DNA of 11,192 bases from Anaerolineaceae bacterium (GTDB lineage: Bacteria > Chloroflexota > Anaerolineae > Anaerolineales > Anaerolineaceae): the NCBI GenBank assembly GCA_003158355.1, contig PMIV01000043.1, positions 1 through 11,192 on the forward strand, given 5' to 3'. The translations under genes were made by a program, and so were the position numbers. The notes under the pieces were generated by a model. That model saw only the letters and a program-made list of their open reading frames with translations. It made no database searches and was not told where the DNA came from. Below, in pieces: positions 1-10,815 of this stretch; the first letter of the stretch is position 1; each line of letters begins with the position of its first letter.

Positions 1-50
1 ATCAATTTCGGCTCTCTCATTTTGAATTCAAGTCAAAAATTTTTATCCAA

Positions 51-1223
51 TTACCCTTCGTAATCATTTTTTCCCCATATTGGAGCCTGTGGGTAACTAA
101 AAACACCATTTAACCCAACAAGTATAATGATTTCTTTGGTCATCACATTTTGACGGAAAATACTTATTGTATTATCTCCTAAGTAATCTGCCGAAAAAGT
201 AATATAATTTCCATCTGGCGACCAAGAAATCCCTCCATTTCCACGATTTACTTCACAAATTGCGCACAAATATTCATTGAATTCGCCATTCTTGGGCTGT
301 AGATATAACCATTGTTGATTTTCTCCGTTATTATTAATTACAGCAATACCATTTCTTGGACTGTTGTTATCATAAGCAAAATAAACAATTCTTTTTCCAT
401 CAGGAGACCAAATAGGATTGACCCCCTTGGTCAAACTGCTCAATAAGTTACCTTCTTCGTCAACAATCTCAATGAATCCATTTCTACTGATAGCCAATAT
501 ATCCACAGTTGGCGAGAAAGAAGCGCTTGTTACATTTCCGCTTAGTTTTTCATCCCAACAATGAAAATCGTTTGATAAATTCAGAATACAAACACTATTC
601 TCACCAAGATTCTGGGAATAGTTTGTACACGTAATAATTATTCGCTTCCCATCCTTAGACCAACTAATTGAATTGTATCCTTGGTTAGAATTATTATTCG
701 CTTCACAATTATCTGGCAAATCAATCTTATTAATAATTAGATCTGCAGAATTATTTTTAAATTCCACTGGAAATGAGCGATAGACGATTGCTTTATCTAT
801 ATTGAGAATGCATATCTGGTTAATATTTTTACAACCGATTGCTATATATTTTCCATCCGGTGACCATGCAGGGGAACCTGTGAATTCCCCAATATTAGCT
901 AATATCGCCCCATCTGCATTCATTAAGTAATACTCAATATGTCGGTCTGGTTCATTTACTACTGCACCGAATACAATAGTTCCCCCCGGATAATTCTTTT
1001 TGGATGTAAATTCATCCGACTGAAAAGTTAATTCTTGAGATGAAACAGAATCAAAATTAGAGTTACCCCCTCGTTGGATTGAATTGTTGTCTGAATTTGC
1101 AGCCTTACTCATTTTCCCCACCAACATCCAAGTTCCCGATACTATCCCCAATAGTAGAACTATAGATAAAATAGAAAGAATTAATTTGTGATTCAAAAAC
1201 GCATGAAAAATACGAATTTTCAT
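51..1223 (-). CDS. Membrane-anchored TolB/PD40-type beta-propeller protein; candidate immunity protein
   Basis: A 390-residue protein with a short basic N-terminus and one long hydrophobic stretch (about residues 13-37). No convincing signal-peptidase site is visible, so I read it as a signal anchor with the rest outside the membrane. A Ser/Asn-rich linker (about 38-80) precedes a beta-propeller. Repeated PD40 motifs of the form (A/S/I)WSPDGK(Y/R) are visible with Trp at 120, 188, 272 and 334, a degenerate blade near 237 (SPTVDILAIS), and a final W383 that may close the ring. PD40 propellers bind proteins or ligands and are not enzymes by themselves. The start follows the stop of the RHS gene by 5 bases, and its ribosome site lies inside that gene's last codons, so the two are translationally linked. 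The gene is AT-rich like the RHS tip. Its place directly after an RHS C-terminal domain is that of an immunity gene, but no sequence match supports this; it could be an unrelated sensor or scaffold. Confidence 0.85.
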   Translation of the reverse strand: MKIRIFHAFLNHKLILSILSIVLLLGIVSGTWMLVGKMSKAANSDNNSIQRGGNSNFDSVSSQELTFQSDEFTSKKNYPGGTIVFGAVVNEPDRHIEYYLMNADGAILANIGEFTGSPAWSPDGKYIAIGCKNINQICILNIDKAIVYRSFPVEFKNNSADLIINKIDLPDNCEANNNSNQGYNSISWSKDGKRIIITCTNYSQNLGENSVCILNLSNDFHCWDEKLSGNVTSASFSPTVDILAISRNGFIEIVDEEGNLLSSLTKGVNPIWSPDGKRIVYFAYDNNSPRNGIAVINNNGENQQWLYLQPKNGEFNEYLCAICEVNRGNGGISWSPDGNYITFSADYLGDNTISIFRQNVMTKEIIILVGLNGVFSYPQAPIWGKNDYEG

Positions 1224-1228
1224 CGAAA

Positions 1229-1911
1229 TTACCTTCCCATAAAGATGATGGATATTTTTTGAATATCTTTATTGTTGGTATCAAACATTGATCTCGGTAA
1301 TTCAATTGGTTGGTTATTATATCCAGTTGACGGCCCATCAACTTCTTGAATATAGGGTATTGTATTACCATTTTCATCATTTACAATATCTACAATCATA
1401 GCTACATGTGTCCAGTCCGGTTGGCCAGTTTCAGGGTTTGAATAGGTAGTAGGATCCATGTAATATACCAAATCACCCACTTGAATATTTCCAGAATTAT
1501 TATTAATCAATTGATGTAAAGACTTATTATCAAAAATACTCTCTCTTTCATTAGGTTTCTTAAGATTGTTTGTGGCTGGTAAATCTTTACTTTCAATAAA
1601 ATTAAACTGCATTGTTACTGTCCAATAATCAAAGTTATCCGGAGTTTTATACCATGCAGGGCTATTTATACTATTATTCCATATACTGCTAGTAGGTATA
1701 TTTCCAGCTTGAACTGCACTTGAAACAGCCGACGTACAATTAGTTCCTGGATATTGAGTATAATTTTTTCCCATTGCGTTTGCTGCGGCGGCTCCGTTAT
1801 AAACATTCGAATTATTTTGTCCGGATGCTGCCGCTCCAGCATTATTTTTGTACATATCTGTAATTATTTTTTTCTCACCAGGATCCGTCATGTGATCTGT
1901 AAATCTATGCC
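1229..1911 (-). other. RHS C-terminal variable domain (residues ~2230-2456), Cys/His amidase-like
   Basis: This is the segment after the DPSG motif, in the place where polymorphic RHS toxins carry their variable effector. It opens with an Ala/Asn-rich stretch, then the motif NCTSAVSSAVQAG (C2288) and W-rich SIWNNS. Much later come GDLVYYMDP and DWTHVAMIVDIV (H2398), followed by YIQEVDGP. The order Cys on a helix, then GD-(V/I)-x-Y-x-D, then (W)xH(V/S)A(M/I)(I/V)V matches the Amidase_6 and NlpC/P60-like papain-fold hydrolases that act on peptide bonds in peptidoglycan. The third catalytic residue cannot be assigned by eye. Base composition is AT-rich (23-38% GC in the lines counted) against 53-58% in the adjoining core. 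Substrate is inferred, not shown. Confidence 0.55.
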
Positions 1912-4900
1912 CACTTGGATCATTGAAACTAATCGGATTATTGTTCACATAAGCATAGCGGTCAAAACTCTTTGAACTTCCTGCCTCTGGAATGACAGAA
2001 TCCATCTGGACAAAGTGAGCTATGGTGGGGTCATAGAAGCGCGACGCATAGTAGTCCAACCCAATCTCTGCCTCTTGCTGCTGGCCGGTGTACTTCTTAT
2101 CAGTTACTGTCGTCCCGCTACTGGTCCGTATTTCTCCAAAAGAGCTATATTTCACCTCTGAAGCCAGGCTGCCATCCGCATTGGCCGTGATCGTGGTCGA
2201 ACTCACCTGATCCTGCAACAGCCAGGTGACTACACCATTTTCTCTCATGGCCACAACCGAACCACTGAAGCTGTAGTACTTGCGCGTGTTGGTATGAGTA
2301 CCGTCTGTCTTCACCTGATAGACTGAGCTCGGGTAATAGGTAATGAGATTGTCGATCACCGATTTCACCATCGTGCCATTGCCATCATAGTAGTACTTGG
2401 CGCTGCCATTTGGCGGTGTTGCAGTTGCAGTGGCCGTGGGGGTCGATGTCAACGTCGCCGTCGAGGTGATAGTCGGGGTTTGTGTCACGGTGCTGGTCAT
2501 CGTAGGTGTATTCGTGATGGTCGATGTTTGCGTAGCTGTGCCAGTATTGGTGGCAGTCGGCGTAATTGTTGGGGGTAAAGTCTGCGTCGGCGTATTGCTG
2601 GGCAATGGAGTATTGCTCGGCAATGGGGTCTCACTGGGTATCGGTGTTTCAGTCGCTGTATCCGCAAACGTCGAGATACCATCCCAGGTAGGTGTCTCGC
2701 TGGGCACAGGGGTATCACTGGGTACCGGAGTATCAGTCGGCAAAGGTGTTTCGCTAGGTACGGGGGTATCCGTCACGGTCGGAGTTTGAGTTGATGTACT
2801 GGTATTGGTCGGCGTTGGCGTCACCGTGGCGGTCAAAGTCGCTGTAGCCGTCTGCGTTGACGTAGAAGTCACTGTTGCGGTATTGGTTTGGGTAGCGGTT
2901 GGAGTACGTGTGGCGGTTTGCGTCGGCGTCAAAGTTTTAGTTGGCGTACTCGTTATCGTCGGCGTGAGGGTGATCGTCGGGGTTAAAGTGATCGTAGGCG
3001 TCAAAGTTAACGTTGGCGTGGCAGTAGGCGTCACTCCAAACCAACTCACGGCCTCGTTTGTGAAGGGATGATCGGAACTCACTTGCACCAGGTTATTACC
3101 GGCATCGTAAACCAGTTGGAACATGGCACTGGCCAATGTACGGGTGGTCTGGTTACCATCAGCATCATAACTATAGCTATTGCTGTTGTAACCGGCCACG
3201 GCATGTTTGTGCGCCGAGTCATAGGTGAAGGAAAGTCCATTCTTGTTGGACATGCTGCCGGTTAAGGCATCATAGCCAAAACTCTCGCTGAAGGTGGTTA
3301 CGTTGGAAGAGTTTTTCACGGTGTTGGCCGTCAAACGGTTCAGTGCATCATATGTAAAGGTGGAAGTCTCTCCCGCATGAGAATCGGCTATGGAGGTGAT
3401 GTTAGCATTATGGTCGTAGGTGTAGGTCAGGTTCTGCAAGGTGGCACTGACCGAGTTAGTTGTAACCACGGATTGCAGCTTGCCACCATTGGTCGCGGTC
3501 GTCCAGGAGTAATAGCTGTACTGTTTGTTTAAAATGGCGCTACCGGAAGTATCCCCCAGCTTGAGATTGGTCATGCGTCCGGCTTCATCATACCAGGCAC
3601 CCTTCACATAGGTATAGTTGGCACCGTTGTTGCCAGACAATGAGATGGGAGTGCCCTGGCTGTCATAGCCGTAGGTGAGCACTTCGTTATCGGGCAGGGT
3701 CGTGGTCACGGGCAAATCAGCACTGTTATAAGTCCACGCAGTGGTATAAGATTGTGCTTGAGTCGTGCCGGTGCCCTGGTAGATCTTCTTTATCTCGCTG
3801 GTTGTGCGTCCACGCGAATCGTAGGCGTCCAATGTAGCACCACTGCCATCCACCATGCCGATCAAGTGACCGGCGGTGTTGCTGGTGCTGCTGCCATAAG
3901 CTGTGCCCAGGAAGTTAAAGCCCTGATTATCGTAATAATACGCGACCGATCCGGTGGTTGCACAGGCTGCCGGGCCGGAATAACTCTTGGCGGTGACACG
4001 GTTGAGCAGATCATAGCTCATGGAGGTCACACAACTGCGTGCGTCGGTTTGGCTAGTCAAGTTGCTCTGCGCGTCATAACCGTAGGACCAGGTACCCGCA
4101 TCGGGGTCAGTCATGCCTGTCTTACGTCCGGCATGATCGTAGTTCACCGAGATAGTTGTGATGCCTTTCACCGCAGAGACCAATTGGTCAAGTGCATTAT
4201 AAGAATAGACCAGGTTGGGACCGGTGGGTTCATTCACAGCGATCACCCGCCCCCAGACGTCATTGATAGTAGAAGTCACCTGTGACATGGGGTCGGTAAC
4301 GCGGGTCACCAGTCCATTGTAAGCAGAAGAAGTCGTGTTACCATTCGGCGCAATGGAGGATATCTGCCGCCCATACACATCATAAGTATTGGTCGTTGCC
4401 GTCTGGGTGAAGGTCTGGCTGATGAAATTGGGGGTAGTTGTATAGGTAGAAGTATAGGGTTCTGTTACCTTGGTTTGTCTGCCCATATTGTCGTACTGGG
4501 TATCTACTACGCTGTTTACCTGTGAACCGTTGACCACGGCTCCAATCGTCTGGTCCTGAATCAATTTACCCAGACCGCTGTAGAAATAACTCAGACGGAT
4601 GGTCGCGCCGCTGTCATTTACCTTCTGATTTAAATCCACCTGATAGGGAACGCGCGTGTCATAATAAGTAACGGCCAGCGTTGGAGCGGCTGTACTGTCT
4701 CCCGGCGCAATTACCTTGAGGGTACGTCCAAACAGGTCATACGTTGCCGAGGTGGTTGCATTATTCGGATCTGTCGTGCTGGTGGCTACGCCCAAACTGT
4801 AATCATAAGCTGTCTGGGTGGTCTGGTTGAGTGCATTGGTGGCACTCAACGCATACGTATTGTAATAAGAATCATAGGTGGTGCTGCTCGTTCTGGCCCC

Positions 4901-7900
4901 AACCGTCGGTGCGGAAGTCGCCGTGCCATAGCCGCTGTAAGCGGTCTGCCCGGTCTGGTTGCCATAATTATCATAAGCATAGGAAGTCTGCGCATAATTG
5001 TTGGCGCTATCCACCCAGGTACGGGTGGCCGTGAGTTTGCCAGCCGTAGGCGAAGTTGTGGCTGCCGAGGCATTGTCGTATAAATAGAGAGCTTCAGCCA
5101 GTTTACCGTTACTTGTCGTGAAATCGCAGCTGGAAGCACAATCCAGAGTAACCTCACGTGCGGGTAAAGTAGTGAGGGCGCTCGCCGCATTTGGGTAGAA
5201 CTGGGTCAGCTTGGCCCGATAATTCACCCATGCGCTGCCGTTCCAATAAGATTGCGTGGTACGCGTTAGATTGCCATACTGCGCGCCGCCCTGATCAGCC
5301 GTATTGTAATCATAAGCAGTTTTTGTGCCGCTCCAGGAAATGTTCCCGTTAAACAAGCGTGAGATCGCTGAACTGACCGTGGACCAGTTCACCTGCAAAT
5401 CCACAAAATTGGTCAGGCTGGTCAGATCCGGAATGCTGTCTGACAGCGTGTTATACAAAGTACTGGCGTTGTAAGTGGTTTCTGTTTCAGAGTAGGGCAC
5501 ACCCTCAAAATATGAATCCAAATACACGGTGCCGTTGTAGACCTTGTCGGTGAAGCGTAAATAAGAGGTCGGAGTAATACATATTAATCCCCGTCGAGAA
5601 TCTATACAAGACTGTGGGACCGCAATTGAAGATTCAGCAAAAACTGACGGGTTATTCTTTTCCCAAACTCGAACAACTCTTTTTCCATCAAGGTTCACAA
5701 AAATCATTAACATATATAATGTGTCACGTTTAAATGAACTCGCTGGGATGAGTAATGTGTCTGTGGTTACCCCACTCGTTATACTACGCATATTTAGATT
5801 ATGCGAGCTGCCATTGGGAACTGCATAAATTCCAAAGAAGTCACCAGAGGAATTTTCCACACCCAGTTGGGCCTGGGTATTGGCTCCACTCACCTGGAAC
5901 TGGGTATACATCACGTCACCATCGGTCAGCGAATAAGCTGAGCGGTTGCTGACTGTTGTCCAATCTGCTGTCGAACTCACAGATTCCAGGGCACTTTCGT
6001 TTACCCCCACCCCAGCGATGTATTGCCGTACGTTTGGATGGCTAAATGACCACTTGGTCGTATCCAGGGAGTTAAATTCATCCGATACATCCTTTGTGCT
6101 GGTGAGAGTACGATAGGGAAGTCCTTTACGCAGATCATCCTGGTTGTACCAGGTAGTTGTCACCAGTCCGTCTGGATTCGTCACTTGTACTTGCGAGTAA
6201 CCGCGATAATCTCGATAGGTTTGTGTATAGCGTTTTTGTGAACCCGTTAAGGTAATCTTTGCTGTGTCAGAATGTGCAGAATCATTTACAGCTGCATCAT
6301 TATAGGAATACAAATAGGTACCACTGGCAGACGTTGCCGTATCAGCTACTATTTGACTCGTCACCCGGTAGTATAGCGGCATTAACAATATTTGAAGCTT
6401 TTTGACATAACAATCATCGCATTCCATTTTCAACTTTGTATTGAGAGGGTTAAGAGTGACCGGCATTTCCACTCCACCCTCCTTTTCAGTTAATGTGGTT
6501 CCAATGCCAGTAAGCGTCACTTCGTAGTCATGATCGCCAGGGTTTGTAAAGCCAAATATGATACTGGTAGTCTGATAAATGTCACGGGCCTTAACATACA
6601 GCCGGTATTCGGCGCCTTGTTTAATCAGGTTTTGCGGGAAAGTCCGCTGCCCTAAACCAACTGAATTGCTGGCTTTGTCCACTTGTAACATGTTCGCTTC
6701 ACATTTGGTGGTGCCATAACCCGAGACAGCAGACCAGGCGGTACCAATGGTGTCGCTGCATTCGTCCTGACCAAAAACAGTCGAAAGCATCCAGGTGTCA
6801 TGATTCACATCATCCAGATAAGTCCAGCGCTCGTAGTTAAAGGTCGTCGAGCCACCCTGGCTATTATCCGCTTTGGTGAGGTGCATCGTGTCGCTATAAG
6901 TAAATTGAGTTGCCGGGAGATTGACCGTGCCGTCCCCGCTACGCTCCTGCACTCCTACTAAGGTAGTGGTTAACCCTGCAGTTGTGCCGCCTTTTGTCCA
7001 ACGAAAATTGGGATAAATTTGATTCGTGGTTGAGTCGGAATAGGTAAAAACATACTGCCGAATGGTGTTCCAGGTGGTTCCACTTGGATTTTGCTTGATC
7101 AGAATGCTTGTCAGTAGCTGATTCTGAAAGAAGATCTTGGAATCATCCGCTTCCCAGGCAGATTGGTAATCTGTGCGGGTGCCCAATACGAAAGCGATCT
7201 GATAATGTTGGTTAGGATAGGTAATAGTGGTGGGATAGACCGCAACCTGGTTGAGACAGGTGGATGAGGTGGTTTTCTTTTGATTGGAATAAGCATATGT
7301 TGTTATGTTGTTGAACTTATCGGTTGCCGTGGTGAGCGACCAACGCCAGGTGAGGTTGAGATCGCCTGTGCTGGTAACGCAGCTATTGGTCGCATTGGTT
7401 TTTGTTTGGAAACTGAAAGCGTAAGTCGTTCCTGCTTGGTCTTTGATGGTCCAGGCATCGGTAGAGGAATTGTATTGAATTAACCAATAATTCATGGCCT
7501 CCGCGGCGTAGGTCGTCACTGTTCCGGATACGCTGATCGGTAACAATTGACTGCTCACCCCACCCAGGGTAATCTGATAGGAATCGTCGCTCAGATCACT
7601 GTTGGTGCTGTGCATATTTCGCTCGATGTAGCCGGTATCCAATGACCAGCCCATTCCTACCCAACCTGCTTCGGTGAATGCCGTAGAGCTATCCACTATT
7701 TGGCTATTGTAGCTCAAAGACAAAGAAGGTGAATAACTACCCGTTGTCGGTGGCATCCAGAAAGACATATCATAGGTAGCCGCGCCGGTATTGCCGGTTA
7801 CCTGTGCCTGATCAACGGTAGGTAGATGTGCTCCCTGCCAGGAATTGGCTTGATAATCAAAAACCGTCAGGTGGTTGACCTGAGCCGTGAGCTTGTGGCT

Positions 7901-8599
7901 GACTGTATCCACAGTGGTATGGACAGGCCACCAATCATTGGTGGTTTCATCATAGTAATAGATCGATAAATCATCTTCCGATCCACCGCCATAAATTTTT
8001 GTAGGATCATAATTCATTGAAATTGTGAAATTACCGTTAAATTTGTTGACGTTTTTCTTGCTCGTTTCGCCCACAGCCACTACTTCAACCGGATTTCCAC
8101 TCATTGAATATCCATGGATGTTGGATGGGCTGGGATCACGCACGTCCATGTAGAGGGATTCTGAAAGCGTGCTGGCCGGAAAATCCAGAGTGACCCTACC
8201 ATCCTTGCTTACCAGGTGGTTGCTTTTTCCGGCAACTGCCTCGAGGGTAGGTTTGGTCATCAAGATTGAATTTGTAGCCAGTTGATCCGTACCGGAGTTT
8301 ACATCCACATTAATCAGGTAAGAAGAATCGGTGATGGCATCTGAGTTGAAACTGGTGCTCCCCGTTGCGGCAGTCATGGGGAGGTTCATCGATGTCGTAT
8401 CTGCCCCCTTGGTCAGGTTTGTCGAAATTCCGTTAGTTTTCATTGCGTTCGGGAAATTCACAACCGTTTGCAGGCTCCCTTTTTTCTGCGCTGTGGCCCA
8501 ACCATTGACTGACCACTGCACAGAAACCGGTACACCCGGAATAATTAGCTGGGGGTCCGCTTTTAGGTTCACTTCAACAGGAGTTGTATCTGAAGCCAC
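1229..8599 (-). CDS. Giant RHS/YD-repeat protein with C-terminal amidase-like toxin domain (WapA-type), severed from its signal peptide
   Basis: The open frame has 2456 codons from a GTG at 8599; numbering here uses that start. Residues 1-125 are Ig-like beta sequence. Residues 127-250 are a beta-sandwich opening with VTLDFPASTL. About 265-330 is the RHS N-terminal segment (VTGNTGAATYDMSFWMPP, GWVGMGWSL). About 590-715 and 838-1000 are inserted beta domains, the second resembling a concanavalin-A/LamG jelly roll (DEFNSLDTTKWSF). YD repeats fill about 1094-1855 (YDxxGRxT, YDAQSN, YDLLNRV). About 1855-2063 is a Thr/Pro insert. The RHS core (GLDYYASRFYDP, YAYVNNNPISFNDPSG) ends at D2227-G2230, the usual self-cleavage zone. 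The C-terminal 226 residues carry NC2288TSAVS and GDLVYYM...WTH2398VAMIV, like Amidase_6/NlpC-type cysteine hydrolases. Known relatives deliver C-terminal toxins to neighbouring cells. The GTG has no good ribosome site; the real start is very probably the ATG at 8782, cut off by a TAA. Either the gene is a recent nonsense mutant, the stop is read through, or the base is an error. Confidence 0.9.
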   Translation of the reverse strand: MASDTTPVEVNLKADPQLIIPGVPVSVQWSVNGWATAQKKGSLQTVVNFPNAMKTNGISTNLTKGADTTSMNLPMTAATGSTSFNSDAITDSSYLINVDVNSGTDQLATNSILMTKPTLEAVAGKSNHLVSKDGRVTLDFPASTLSESLYMDVRDPSPSNIHGYSMSGNPVEVVAVGETSKKNVNKFNGNFTISMNYDPTKIYGGGSEDDLSIYYYDETTNDWWPVHTTVDTVSHKLTAQVNHLTVFDYQANSWQGAHLPTVDQAQVTGNTGAATYDMSFWMPPTTGSYSPSLSLSYNSQIVDSSTAFTEAGWVGMGWSLDTGYIERNMHSTNSDLSDDSYQITLGGVSSQLLPISVSGTVTTYAAEAMNYWLIQYNSSTDAWTIKDQAGTTYAFSFQTKTNATNSCVTSTGDLNLTWRWSLTTATDKFNNITTYAYSNQKKTTSSTCLNQVAVYPTTITYPNQHYQIAFVLGTRTDYQSAWEADDSKIFFQNQLLTSILIKQNPSGTTWNTIRQYVFTYSDSTTNQIYPNFRWTKGGTTAGLTTTLVGVQERSGDGTVNLPATQFTYSDTMHLTKADNSQGGSTTFNYERWTYLDDVNHDTWMLSTVFGQDECSDTIGTAWSAVSGYGTTKCEANMLQVDKASNSVGLGQRTFPQNLIKQGAEYRLYVKARDIYQTTSIIFGFTNPGDHDYEVTLTGIGTTLTEKEGGVEMPVTLNPLNTKLKMECDDCYVKKLQILLMPLYYRVTSQIVADTATSASGTYLYSYNDAAVNDSAHSDTAKITLTGSQKRYTQTYRDYRGYSQVQVTNPDGLVTTTWYNQDDLRKGLPYRTLTSTKDVSDEFNSLDTTKWSFSHPNVRQYIAGVGVNESALESVSSTADWTTVSNRSAYSLTDGDVMYTQFQVSGANTQAQLGVENSSGDFFGIYAVPNGSSHNLNMRSITSGVTTDTLLIPASSFKRDTLYMLMIFVNLDGKRVVRVWEKNNPSVFAESSIAVPQSCIDSRRGLICITPTSYLRFTDKVYNGTVYLDSYFEGVPYSETETTYNASTLYNTLSDSIPDLTSLTNFVDLQVNWSTVSSAISRLFNGNISWSGTKTAYDYNTADQGGAQYGNLTRTTQSYWNGSAWVNYRAKLTQFYPNAASALTTLPAREVTLDCASSCDFTTSNGKLAEALYLYDNASAATTSPTAGKLTATRTWVDSANNYAQTSYAYDNYGNQTGQTAYSGYGTATSAPTVGARTSSTTYDSYYNTYALSATNALNQTTQTAYDYSLGVATSTTDPNNATTSATYDLFGRTLKVIAPGDSTAAPTLAVTYYDTRVPYQVDLNQKVNDSGATIRLSYFYSGLGKLIQDQTIGAVVNGSQVNSVVDTQYDNMGRQTKVTEPYTSTYTTTPNFISQTFTQTATTNTYDVYGRQISSIAPNGNTTSSAYNGLVTRVTDPMSQVTSTINDVWGRVIAVNEPTGPNLVYSYNALDQLVSAVKGITTISVNYDHAGRKTGMTDPDAGTWSYGYDAQSNLTSQTDARSCVTSMSYDLLNRVTAKSYSGPAACATTGSVAYYYDNQGFNFLGTAYGSSTSNTAGHLIGMVDGSGATLDAYDSRGRTTSEIKKIYQGTGTTQAQSYTTAWTYNSADLPVTTTLPDNEVLTYGYDSQGTPISLSGNNGANYTYVKGAWYDEAGRMTNLKLGDTSGSAILNKQYSYYSWTTATNGGKLQSVVTTNSVSATLQNLTYTYDHNANITSIADSHAGETSTFTYDALNRLTANTVKNSSNVTTFSESFGYDALTGSMSNKNGLSFTYDSAHKHAVAGYNSNSYSYDADGNQTTRTLASAMFQLVYDAGNNLVQVSSDHPFTNEAVSWFGVTPTATPTLTLTPTITLTPTITLTPTITSTPTKTLTPTQTATRTPTATQTNTATVTSTSTQTATATLTATVTPTPTNTSTSTQTPTVTDTPVPSETPLPTDTPVPSDTPVPSETPTWDGISTFADTATETPIPSETPLPSNTPLPSNTPTQTLPPTITPTATNTGTATQTSTITNTPTMTSTVTQTPTITSTATLTSTPTATATATPPNGSAKYYYDGNGTMVKSVIDNLITYYPSSVYQVKTDGTHTNTRKYYSFSGSVVAMRENGVVTWLLQDQVSSTTITANADGSLASEVKYSSFGEIRTSSGTTVTDKKYTGQQQEAEIGLDYYASRFYDPTIAHFVQMDSVIPEAGSSKSFDRYAYVNNNPISFNDPSGHRFTDHMTDPGEKKIITDMYKNNAGAAASGQNNSNVYNGAAAANAMGKNYTQYPGTNCTSAVSSAVQAGNIPTSSIWNNSINSPAWYKTPDNFDYWTVTMQFNFIESKDLPATNNLKKPNERESIFDNKSLHQLINNNSGNIQVGDLVYYMDPTTYSNPETGQPDWTHVAMIVDIVNDENGNTIPYIQEVDGPSTGYNNQPIELPRSMFDTNNKDIQKISIIFMGR
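1232..1237 (-). promoter_or_regulatory. Ribosome binding site of the propeller gene, inside the RHS 3' end
   Basis: GGAAGG on the minus strand, 8 bases before the ATG at 1223. It overlaps the last sense codons (Gly-Arg) of the RHS gene, whose TAA is at 1229-1231. This fixes the propeller start and points to coupled translation from one mRNA. Confidence 0.7.
2411..3037 (-). repeat. Thr/Pro-rich low-complexity repeat tract inside the RHS gene
   Basis: About 627 bases encode residues ~1855-2063, almost entirely TPT, TxTxT and PSxTP units. Two sub-blocks show near 18-base periodicity: LTPTIT units near 2950-3030 and LPSNTP/VPSDTP units near 2590-2760. A short non-repeat island with Trp (TWDGISTFADT) sits near 2660-2690. 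Thr/Pro tracts of this type act as extended, often glycosylated, spacers in secreted proteins. Here the tract lies between two YD hairpins (NLVQVS before, KYYYDGNG after), so it interrupts the shell rather than linking domains. The antisense strand reads as Val/Gly repeats, which explains spurious plus-strand open frames here. Confidence 0.85.
5600..6090 (-). other. Inserted jelly-roll (LamG/DUF1349-like) domain within the RHS protein
   Basis: Residues ~838-1000 are not YD repeats. They begin DEFNSLDTTKWSF and continue with beta-strand-like text ending around SSIAVPQS. An opening DxFN(S/G)xLDxxxW is characteristic of concanavalin-A-like domains, which often bind glycans. Part of it (about 5580-5830) is clearly AT-richer than the flanking RHS sequence (32-38% GC in two lines counted). 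It would sit on the outside of the shell, possibly as a surface-binding arm. Family naming is by eye only. Confidence 0.5.
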
Positions 8600-8641
8600 T
8601 GCCTGTTGGCTTTTTAATGTATCCGATAATAAAGGTACGGG

Positions 8642-8644
8642 TTA
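8642..8644 (-). other. In-frame stop codon separating signal peptide from RHS body
   Basis: Reading the minus strand in steps of three from the ATG at 8782, the only stop before 1229 is this TAA, with codons GCT before and CCC after. No frameshift is needed to join the halves. The 14 codons between the stop and the GTG at 8599 contain no ATG, GTG or TTG. Re-initiation would therefore have to use the GTG, which has only a weak AGGCA-like sequence just before it. Confidence 0.9.
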
Positions 8645-8782
8645 AGCTTTCACCGCCTCTGCAACTGAAGCATTTTGTGCCAACGCCCCAGTTTGCGCTT
8701 TTAGACTACCTTGAGACGCAAACCCACTAATTCCCTGGAATAGCATAGATACAATTAACGCAGCATTGAACAGCGCTCTCAT
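8642..8782 (-). CDS. Signal peptide ORF (46 codons), in frame with the RHS protein and ended by TAA
   Basis: The ATG at 8780-8782 has a perfect AGGAGG 5 bases upstream. It encodes MRALFNAALIVSMLFQGISG followed by FASQGSLKAQ. There is a basic residue at position 2, a hydrophobic core (about 4-17) and a likely signal-peptidase site after GFA, so this is a textbook Sec signal peptide. The frame continues with an Ala/Gln-rich segment to A46, then TAA at 8642-8644. Beyond the stop the same frame (PVPLLSDTLKSQQ) runs straight into the RHS protein at 8599 with no gap. I infer that this is the true 5' end of the RHS gene, giving 2517 residues if the stop is read as sense. A one-base change such as CAA to TAA would create the stop. 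A free-standing secreted 46-residue peptide is possible but less likely. Confidence 0.75.
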   Translation of the reverse strand: MRALFNAALIVSMLFQGISGFASQGSLKAQTGALAQNASVAEAVKA

Positions 8783-8787
8783 ATAAC

Positions 8788-8793
8788 CCTCCT
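8788..8793 (-). promoter_or_regulatory. Strong ribosome binding site for the signal peptide ORF
   Basis: AGGAGG on the minus strand, followed by GTTAT and the ATG. It is the best Shine-Dalgarno match noted in the window. It decides that translation of the RHS locus begins at 8782 rather than at the GTG at 8599. Confidence 0.85.
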
Positions 8794-8824
8794 AATACGC
8801 CTATGAAGTTGTAATATCAAGGTA

Positions 8825-8853
8825 ATAATACAATCTGTTTTCTAATTATTCAA
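8825..8853 (-). promoter_or_regulatory. Sigma70-type promoter for the RHS/propeller operon
   Basis: On the minus strand there is a -35 TTGAAT (8848-8853), a 17-base spacer and a -10 TATTAT (8825-8830). This predicts a transcript start near 8818 and a leader of about 35 bases that includes the AGGAGG site. Each box differs from consensus at two or fewer positions. The surrounding DNA is AT-rich, which raises the chance of a fortuitous match, but spacing and position are ideal. Confidence 0.55.
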
Positions 8854-8977
8854 GTACGATCTTTGCATTTTGCTAATATTTTAAGTTTTCTTAGATTCTT
8901 CCTCCTTTTTGTTGATTAAAAAAGAAAATTCGATAAATTAGAAATAGCATTTTCTGGTAAATGTTTCTGATTAATAA

Positions 8978-9006
8978 TTTACATTTCGCTAACTATTTGC
9001 TACAAT
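8978..9006 (+). promoter_or_regulatory. Extended -10 sigma70-type promoter for the transglycosylase gene
   Basis: -35 TTTACA (8978-8983), a 17-base spacer ending in TGC, and -10 TACAAT (9001-9006), so the TGn extension is present. This predicts a transcript start near 9013 and a leader of about 24 bases. A second possible -10, TATACT at 9012-9017, has no well-placed -35. The arrangement is back to back with the RHS promoter, about 125 bases away. Confidence 0.6.
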
Positions 9007-9021
9007 GATTCTATACTGGAT

Positions 9022-9028
9022 AAGGGGG
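9022..9028 (+). promoter_or_regulatory. Ribosome binding site of the transglycosylase-like gene
   Basis: AAGGGGG, 8 bases before the ATG at 9037. It supports that ATG, which is also the one giving a complete N-terminal signal sequence. Confidence 0.65.
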
Positions 9029-9036
9029 ACTACCAG

Positions 9037-10815
9037 ATGAAGCGGGGAATATATTCAACGTGGATATTCAAAGTTGTTTTTTCTTTGTTTTTAAGTCTGT
9101 TTTTGTCAGGCTGTATTACTCTCCTTGTATTGGCTCAAGATAAGCCCCAACCTGCGATGGATCGCACCTCCAAGATTGAAGTGGATGAAACCGATTACCA
9201 CTGGCTGTTGAATTTTCTCTCTGATCGATCTACTGCCTGCAATTTTGTCGTTAATCACGATGGAGACCCAACGGACCAGGATATCCAATCCGGTTGCGGA
9301 GAAGCTCTATTCCAGGAGCTGAAAGATACCCCATCCTGCTCGAAGGATACTAAAGTTTGCATCGGTCTATACTTGAGCAAAAGTAATAGTTTGCCTGTGC
9401 ACAAGAAAATTATGGTGCAATTATCCCCTCCCAGTATTTCAGTCTCCCTCTCCGGATGCGATTATTCCGAAGACGAGAATTACTGCATAGGTCAACCCAA
9501 GCTGGTTTTTACCGGTGATGAACCCTTACCCAACGAGAGAATTGTCGCCATACATGGCAGTCTGGCAGGTAAAACATTCGAATGCAGTGAAAGTCATTGC
9601 GAAGTCGCGCTCAAGCCAACTGGGCCAGGGGGTGATCCGCTCGTCTTCTGGGGAGATTCCAGCTTTGGCGATTCTACCGCTAAGTTCAATGGATTGGTAC
9701 GGGTAATTCCCAACAAAGAGGCGGACAATGCTTTTTCCATCGATGTGATCAGCGACCAATGGGAAGGGAAAGATCCGCCGAGTTGTTCGGATATTTGGGA
9801 CAAGTTCCCCGAGTCGCTCGACTTGCCCGCCTGGCTGAATACACCCGGTTCAGCAGCTGATCTGAGCAGCAATGACTCGTTGTATTTTCTATCCGCGGCG
9901 CTCATTAATAATGGGCTGGTTGATGCCAGCAGCTGCCAAAACAATGGCCTCGCGGATAAGATCACTGCCAATGAATGCGGCGTTTCGAAGGCAGCGCCCA
10001 AGGTGCAATACTGGCAAAACTTATTCGACCAGGAAATTTTCTCAGTGGCCCGGGAGGATGGGGTCCCCGCAAAGTTACTCAAGAATATCTTCTTACGTGA
10101 AAGTCAGTTTTGGCCGGGGATTTATGATGATATCAAAGAAGTTGGGTTGGGACAGCTAACCGACAACGGTGCCGATACCGCCCTACTCTGGAATCCGCAG
10201 TTCTTCAACTCTTTTTGTCCTCTCGTGTTGGATAAAAGTGTGTGCGCCTATGGATATGCCCAATTACCCGACTATGCGCAATCGATCTTGCGCGGTGCAT
10301 TATTGAGAAAAACCAATGCATCATGTCCAAATTGTGATGAAAAGATTGACCTGACAAAAGCGAGTTTTAGCATTCATGTTTTCGCCGAAACGCTCAAAGC
10401 CAACTGCAGCCAGGTTAATCAATTGATTGTGAATACAACGCATAAATCGGCGCGTGATGTCAGTAGCTATTCCGATCTTTGGCGGTTTACTCTGATGAAC
10501 TATAATGCGGGTCCGGGCTGTTTGGGAAATGCCATCAGCCAGACCTGGAATGCAAAAGTACCTGTCGATTGGGCTCATGTTGCAGCCAATCTGGATCCGG
10601 CTTGCCGGGCAGCGGTGGATTATGACAGGGATATATCTGATGGAGATTCGCTCGCAATTACTGATTTTTCAACCCCACAACCGACGGGAACAATTACTCC
10701 ATCGCCAACGCCAACCGTTACTTTAACTCCAACTCCAACGCTGACTCCAACAATTACCCCCACCCCCTCGTTGCCGCAGTCCAGCATCACAATTATGCCA
10801 ACGGAAACCCATTAG
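9037..10815 (+). CDS. Secreted lytic transglycosylase-like (SLT-fold) protein with Thr/Pro tail
   Basis: 592 residues. The N-terminus is a signal sequence with basic residues at 2, 3 and 12 and a Phe/Leu core. It offers two readings: a lipobox LSGC with C26, or cleavage after VLA (residue 33) before QD. Residues ~45-330 are a Cys-rich region that I cannot assign, suggesting a disulfide-bearing extracellular fold. The catalytic domain follows: LLKNIFLRESQF with the probable acid E355, EVGLGQLT (368-375) and MNYNAGPG (487-494). These are the three diagnostic motifs of soluble lytic transglycosylases (ES, GLxQ, YNAG), in order and at plausible spacing. Such enzymes cleave the MurNAc-GlcNAc bond of peptidoglycan to 1,6-anhydro products. 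An unusual Cys-containing loop (CPNCDE) lies between GLGQL and YNAG. The last ~45 residues are a TPTPTLTPT tail resembling the RHS insert. It is transcribed divergently from the RHS operon. Enzyme class is fairly secure; cellular role is unknown. Confidence 0.8.
   Translation: MKRGIYSTWIFKVVFSLFLSLFLSGCITLLVLAQDKPQPAMDRTSKIEVDETDYHWLLNFLSDRSTACNFVVNHDGDPTDQDIQSGCGEALFQELKDTPSCSKDTKVCIGLYLSKSNSLPVHKKIMVQLSPPSISVSLSGCDYSEDENYCIGQPKLVFTGDEPLPNERIVAIHGSLAGKTFECSESHCEVALKPTGPGGDPLVFWGDSSFGDSTAKFNGLVRVIPNKEADNAFSIDVISDQWEGKDPPSCSDIWDKFPESLDLPAWLNTPGSAADLSSNDSLYFLSAALINNGLVDASSCQNNGLADKITANECGVSKAAPKVQYWQNLFDQEIFSVAREDGVPAKLLKNIFLRESQFWPGIYDDIKEVGLGQLTDNGADTALLWNPQFFNSFCPLVLDKSVCAYGYAQLPDYAQSILRGALLRKTNASCPNCDEKIDLTKASFSIHVFAETLKANCSQVNQLIVNTTHKSARDVSSYSDLWRFTLMNYNAGPGCLGNAISQTWNAKVPVDWAHVAANLDPACRAAVDYDRDISDGDSLAITDFSTPQPTGTITPSPTPTVTLTPTPTLTPTITPTPSLPQSSITIMPTETH

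What the first reader, a model, noticed from the sequence alone, without database searches (positions are those of the whole stretch)
8597..8782. A single in-frame TAA splits a perfect signal peptide from a 2456-codon RHS toxin body
The ATG at 8782 has a promoter, an ideal AGGAGG and a clean Sec signal peptide. Its frame continues into the RHS protein with only one stop, TAA at 8642-8644. The RHS body is otherwise intact over 7.3 kb, so decay must be very recent, or the stop is tolerated by readthrough or re-initiation, or it is a phase-variation-like off switch for export, or a base error. If real, the RHS body would be made without a signal and trapped in the cytoplasm, where a wall hydrolase has no target.
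Basis: partly seen in the sequence, partly recalled or inferred. Interest (0 to 1): 0.75.

Follow-up and report, generated by a model that had tools for sequence, protein, structure and literature searches.

The report
RHS toxin gene silenced by nonsense
In an uncultured Anaerolineaceae bacterium a giant secreted RHS toxin gene carries a single stop codon just behind its export signal; the relatives examined lack this stop, so it is most likely a recently silenced weapon, and several related bacteria carry different single breaks in the same kind of gene.

Summary
On the minus strand ATG 8782 opens a 46-codon signal-peptide frame with AGGAGG (8793-8788), ended by TAA 8644-8642; the same frame is then open for 2470 codons to 1229. 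In relatives signal peptide and RHS body form one frame: 39 of 40 other loci examined, also proteins P0005 and P0006. So the stop is a lesion of this copy, not a separate peptide gene nor a recoded TAA. The body has no other stop, which caps unconstrained divergence since the lesion at about 1%. The tip resembles Amidase_6 through one relative; an intact anchored propeller gene starts 5 bases downstream. Likely state: toxin not exported, putative immunity kept. Five of 58 other RHS loci also show one in-frame stop, at scattered places and of all three kinds; others have frameshifts. This fits repeated young inactivation better than a switch at this joint. A consensus error cannot be excluded without reads: the rpoB comparison speaks against it only weakly. 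An ordinary lesion with a mildly interesting recurrence.

The parts
8788..8793 (-). Shine-Dalgarno AGGAGG before ATG 8782
   Evidence: a GGAGGG site at the same place in G003
8645..8782 (-). 46-codon head with Sec-type signal peptide (P0001)
   Evidence: the same head is fused to the body in relatives
8642..8644 (-). in-frame TAA, the lesion
   Evidence: counted as 1 TAA inside the profile match
8597..8599 (-). GTG, first possible start after the stop; poor ribosome site and no signal peptide
1229..8641 (-). post-stop open frame, RHS body and tip (P0002, 2470 aa, TAA at its end)
1907..2149 (-). Rhs-associated core (TIGR03696)
1232..1906 (-). C-terminal tip, AT-rich (34% GC against 50% in the body), Amidase_6-like through relative G058
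   Evidence: no direct Pfam or PDB sequence match
51..1223 (-). intact propeller gene (P0003, PD40 repeats) with N-terminal hydrophobic anchor, 5 bases after the RHS stop; putative immunity
   Evidence: role inferred from position

Best explanation
A Sec-exported RHS polymorphic toxin gene of an Anaerolineaceae MAG, inactivated recently by one nonsense change in the linker just behind the signal peptide. Translation from ATG 8782 makes a 46-residue leader fragment and stops. At most a weakly started body without a signal could be made, and it would stay in the cytoplasm, away from the expected target of an amidase-like tip. The next gene, a propeller, is intact, so the cell may keep its putative immunity: a resistant non-producer. 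Shown: the frame, the single stop, fusion of head and body in relatives, the open remainder, the intact neighbour. Inferred: that the base is real, that export is lost, the tip activity and the immunity role. It is one of several independent, scattered single lesions in RHS genes of this order.
For: Head and body fused in 39 of 40 other loci examined and in P0005 and P0006. Head has no free-standing homologue. TAA ends the gene and its neighbour, and 0 of 91 ABC_tran matches of this genome hold an in-frame stop. No second stop in 2470 codons, so the lesion is young if the body is unconstrained. Five of 58 other RHS loci show one in-frame stop: G003 TGA, G168 TAG, G357:C19 TAA, G418:C232 TAA, G344:C15 TGA (continuation checked); two show one frameshift (G002, G321:C22), one is decayed (G262).
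Against: No reads were seen; the MAG is fragmented (292 contigs, 84% complete). One printed rpoB row of the same order also holds an in-frame stop (G292), so errors of this kind exist. The excess of stops in RHS genes over rpoB is weak: p = 0.02 and 0.36 on two ways of counting rpoB codons, 0.045 and 0.44 without the window. The same species was not found in another sample. Expression of the propeller gene past a possibly untranslated message is unknown; promoter-like sites ahead of it are no more than chance.
Confidence: 0.72

Rival explanations
1. Consensus or assembly error (or a base of a minor strain) in a fragmented MAG; the real gene is continuous.
For: Draft MAG. The head and its ribosome site are in full order, as expected if the gene works. 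An in-frame stop in one printed rpoB row (G292) shows that such errors occur in this genome set. The rpoB comparison is not decisive (p = 0.36 on the stricter count).
Against: 0 of 91 ABC_tran matches of this genome hold a stop; the rows printed for G003, G002 and G168 also show none, but that list of 219 was cut. Other RHS loci carry single lesions too. On open-frame counts rpoB has about a tenth of the RHS rate.
Confidence: 0.18
2. The stop is tolerated: occasional readthrough, or re-initiation behind it, still gives some functional toxin.
For: The body is free of further stops, and the stop is followed by C, which by recalled general knowledge is not the strongest terminator context.
Against: GTG 8599 has a poor ribosome site; the better sites within 420 codons are not followed by a signal-like stretch, the highest 10-residue mean there being 1.62. 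TAA is the normal stop here. All three stop codons interrupt other loci.
Confidence: 0.06
3. A programmed on/off switch at the signal-peptide joint.
For: Only position: the stop falls right behind the export signal, where one change is enough to stop export.
Against: No direct or inverted repeats of 12 or more bases in 8400-9100. Among 57 matches at E <= 1e-20 in 400 genomes only the window has a stop within the matched N-terminal stretch (many matches begin past the head). Stops of other loci lie elsewhere.
Confidence: 0.02

Closest known systems
Sec-exported RHS polymorphic toxins (T2SS/Sec class in Zhang et al. 2012, PMC3482391; passages and table rows seen)
   Same: Signal peptide, RHS repeats and core, a tip that differs between relatives, a gene directly behind it in the place of an immunity gene; Chloroflexi are listed there for many toxin types.
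   Different: The frame is broken behind the signal peptide; the tip matches no Pfam family directly; the propeller is not shown to be an immunity protein.
Decayed or silent rhs genes and fragments (Jackson et al. 2009, PMC2935791; passages; Poole et al. 2011, PMC3150448; passages)
   Same: Frameshifts and premature stops in rhs sequences are in print, also an in-frame stop in an orphan rhs module.
   Different: Those are mostly displaced fragments; here a nearly whole gene has one stop behind its signal peptide.
Orphan Rhs toxin of Salmonella Typhimurium (Koskiniemi et al. 2014, PMC3967940; abstract and outline)
   Same: An Rhs toxin sequence without export signals is silent while its immunity gene is kept.
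   Different: There the silent unit is a fragment brought into use by recombination; here it is a main gene with one stop.
CDI locus of E. coli CFT073 with an in-frame stop in cdiB (PMC5056734; passage)
   Same: Export of a large contact toxin is presumably lost through one stop while the toxin sequence stays.
   Different: There the stop is in the exporter gene of a two-partner system, not in the toxin gene.

Membership tests
RHS polymorphic toxin | RHS/YD repeats and Rhs-associated core | tested here: met
   PF05593 E 2.6e-16, TIGR03696 E 1.8e-19
RHS polymorphic toxin | C-terminal tip that differs between relatives with the same body | tested here: met
   Tips of P0005-P0056 differ; tip found in 2 of 400 genomes, own included, while the N-terminal part is found in 70 of 400
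RHS polymorphic toxin | Export signal joined to the body | tested here: not met
   In this copy TAA 8644-8642 separates them; joined in 39 of 40 other loci
RHS polymorphic toxin | Cognate immunity gene behind the tip | tested here: inconclusive
   Intact propeller gene 5 bases downstream; G058's related tip is also followed by a propeller, but the two propellers are not detectably related
Amidase_6 (PF12671) | Direct match to the profile | tested here: not met
   Window tip: no Pfam family up to E 10; relation only through G058's tip, which scores 4e-10
Nonsense-inactivated gene (young pseudogene) | Continuous frame in relatives, one internal stop here | tested here: met
Nonsense-inactivated gene (young pseudogene) | Stop supported by reads | not testable with these tools
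   No reads on hand
Nonsense-inactivated gene (young pseudogene) | Product or activity lost | not testable with these tools
   Needs proteomics or an assay

The most novel reading that the evidence does not exclude
In Anaerolineaceae and their order giant Sec-exported RHS toxins are repeatedly parked in a silent state by one nonsense (less often frameshift) lesion while the rest, the putative immunity included, is kept. Populations would then hold resistant non-producers, and the lesions seen are young because silenced alleles are reverted or replaced by recombination before they decay.
Probability: 0.15. Interest if true: 0.55.

Novelty: new member of a known kind. Interest (0 to 1): 0.3.

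Why it matters
It turns an apparent oddity into a testable loss-of-function allele of a probable interbacterial weapon. The survey suggests that single lesions are common in giant RHS genes of these uncultured bacteria: 5 of 58 other loci by one in-frame stop, two by one frameshift, counts that are lower bounds because many loci run into a contig end. That bears on how toxin producers and resistant non-producers coexist, and it warns that gene callers will record such genes as RHS proteins without a signal.

Tried and rejected
Rejected. Separate small peptide gene: no homologue of the 46-aa head found, and the head is fused to the body elsewhere. Recoded TAA; all three stops occur in other loci. 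Slippage or inversion switch: no repeats. Export by an internal start: within 420 codons of the stop, starts with a better ribosome site than GTG 8599 are not followed by a signal-like stretch; the 2.10 stretch after GTG 8599 and GTG 8572 is body sequence that also stands in relatives.

Led nowhere. Structure of the tip without an alignment: mean pLDDT 37.4, unusable, so no fold search was run. Viral contigs: no relative. First genome-contig scan: nothing; the second gave seven loci, five of them in MAGs named Anaerolineaceae or Chloroflexi. PADLOC: no match for P0002-P0004. The same species in another sample was not found: best proteins 69% and 66% identical; both searches scored only the ~8000 candidates that share most words. 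P0057 (66%, 959 aa) begins inside the linker without a signal peptide and could be a second headless allele, but its DNA could not be read. Of the 52 proteins, 11 lack an obvious signal peptide (P0014, P0018, P0020, P0021, P0023, P0025, P0038, P0044, P0051, P0052, P0053); contig ends and wrong starts were not told apart.

Limits of the survey. Heads: one search had 30 rows; the window and ten weak rows (L043-L052) were left out, 19 of 19 remaining have an in-frame head; one search had 21 rows, 20 with a head (L107 accepted), G356 without one in frame but with a candidate in another frame. Body: one search read 59 loci including the window; these are 55 of the 57 matches at E <= 1e-20 (not G056:C28, contig end, and G038:C13, short contig) and four more. 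Many reach a contig end, so lesions are undercounted. G416 and G196 are ambiguous and in no class. The 126,748 codons include displaced tips. The number of rpoB rows (150) was estimated by eye from the printed part.

Full report
What is there. The window is the whole contig C21 of a draft MAG, G000 (2.71 Mb, 292 contigs, 84% complete). Named records of relatives found with the N-terminal alignment are MAGs called Anaerolineaceae or Chloroflexi (five of seven loci; the two others are short matches in Bacilli MAGs). On the minus strand ATG 8782, with AGGAGG at 8793-8788, opens 46 codons that end in TAA 8644-8642; in the same frame 2470 codons then run to a TAA at 1231-1229. The long frame carries RHS repeats (PF05593) and the Rhs-associated core (TIGR03696), and a sub-threshold SpvB match, then an AT-rich tip (34% GC against 50% in the body). 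The next gene, 1223-51, is an intact propeller with a hydrophobic N-terminal anchor, 5 bases behind. An SLT-type gene is divergent upstream.

Is the stop ancestral? No. In the genus, 3 of 16 genomes have this gene: the window, G003 and G002; in the two relatives, and in more distant ones, the signal peptide runs into the body. In 19 of 19 strong loci of the family survey other than the window (ten weak rows not assessed) and in 20 of 21 further loci of the order survey a hydrophobic head is in frame with the body; the exception, G356, has a candidate head in another frame. Of 57 matches at E <= 1e-20 in 400 genomes of the order, only the window has a stop inside the matched N-terminal stretch; many of those matches begin past the head. 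Two intact database proteins, P0005 and P0006, are 69% and 67% identical over the first 450 post-stop residues. The head alone has no homologue.

Is it recoding or a switch? TAA ends this gene and its neighbour. None of 91 ABC_tran matches in this genome holds an in-frame stop. There are no repeats around the stop. The first start behind the stop, GTG 8599, has a poor ribosome site (-1.9 against -10.4 kcal/mol for ATG 8782); better sites within 420 codons are not followed by a signal-like stretch.

How old? Of 22,230 possible single substitutions of the body 883 make a stop. Without constraint about 2.4 to 2.9 further stops are expected per 1% divergence; finding none puts the divergence since the lesion below about 1.0-1.2% (95%), frameshifts not counted. 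So the stop is young, or the body is still under constraint, or the stop is an error.

Does it stand alone? No. Of 58 other RHS loci, 5 have one in-frame stop with RHS or toxin sequence continuing in the same frame: G003 (TGA, cutting off a Tox-REase-7 tip), G168 (TAG, RHS repeats beyond), G357:C19 (TAA), G418:C232 (TAA) and G344:C15 (TGA). Two have one frameshift (G002, G321:C22), one is heavily decayed (G262), two are ambiguous (G416, G196), and G356 lacks an in-frame head. Positions run from near the start to near the tip and all three stop codons occur. This looks like repeated independent inactivation, not like a conserved joint.

Error or real? rpoB was sought in 400 genomes of the order: 376 have a match; about 150 rows are printed, most with full-length open frames, and one (G292) has an in-frame stop. 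Against about 180,000 rpoB codons so estimated, 6 stops in 126,748 RHS-like codons give p = 0.02; if only the matched rpoB stretches count (about 51,000 codons), p = 0.36. The window was chosen for its stop; without it the values are 0.045 and 0.44. So error is a live rival, though not my favourite.

Function. The tip has no direct Pfam or PDB sequence match. It aligns (pairwise E 3e-10) with an RHS tip in G058 that scores Amidase_6 (4e-10) and, below cut-off, CHAP and NLPC_P60. A Cys/His hydrolase of cell wall is the natural guess (family knowledge, not tested). In G058 the next gene is a propeller too, but not detectably related to the window's. The likely state of the cell: leader fragment made, toxin not exported, putative immunity perhaps still made. 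Whether the propeller gene is expressed behind 7.4 kb of possibly untranslated message is open; promoter-like sites ahead of it are no more than chance.

Literature. Premature stops in silent rhs fragments (PMC2935791, passages), an in-frame stop in an orphan rhs module (PMC3150448, passage), an in-frame stop in cdiB of CFT073 that presumably blocks CdiA secretion (PMC5056734, passage) and orphan Rhs without export signals (PMC3967940, abstract) are in print. Six searches of the open library listed no survey of single-stop RHS genes in Chloroflexota among the rows shown; most subscription papers are not held.

Noticed in passing
L070 (G003:C8), minus strand: stop at 9488-9490, open piece 8951-9487: In a genus relative one in-frame TGA cuts the body from a Tox-REase-7 tip (PF15649, E 3.3e-20); head and body are otherwise one open frame.
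   Followed up: yes
L076 (G168:C8), L110 (G357:C19), L112 (G418:C232), L114 (G344:C15): Four more giant RHS frames with one in-frame stop each (TAG, TAA, TAA, TGA) at different places.
   Followed up: partly
L061 (G058:C1), 1204-2010 and 2015-3169: An RHS tip of the Amidase_6 family is followed at once by a lipoprotein-like propeller (Reg_prop), a layout like the window's tip and propeller though the propellers are unrelated.
   Followed up: partly
window 8901-8907 (minus strand): An AAGGAGG with no start codon behind it at the usual distance, between the divergent genes.
   Followed up: no
window 1-1906: Tip and propeller gene have 34-35% GC against 50% in the RHS body, as expected of an exchanged tip and immunity cassette.
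   Followed up: no
L023, L024 (G000:C84), L025 (G000:C261): Three further Rhs cores with short frames elsewhere in the same genome, probably displaced tips.
   Followed up: partly
P0057: A 66% identical protein fragment begins inside the linker without a signal peptide; possibly a second headless allele.
   Followed up: no
G292:C1:1837016-1838011: rpoB of a single-contig genome shows one in-frame TAG; probably a sequence error.
   Followed up: no
window 9037-10815 (+): Divergent gene with an SLT transglycosylase domain and a Pro/Thr-rich tail.
   Followed up: no
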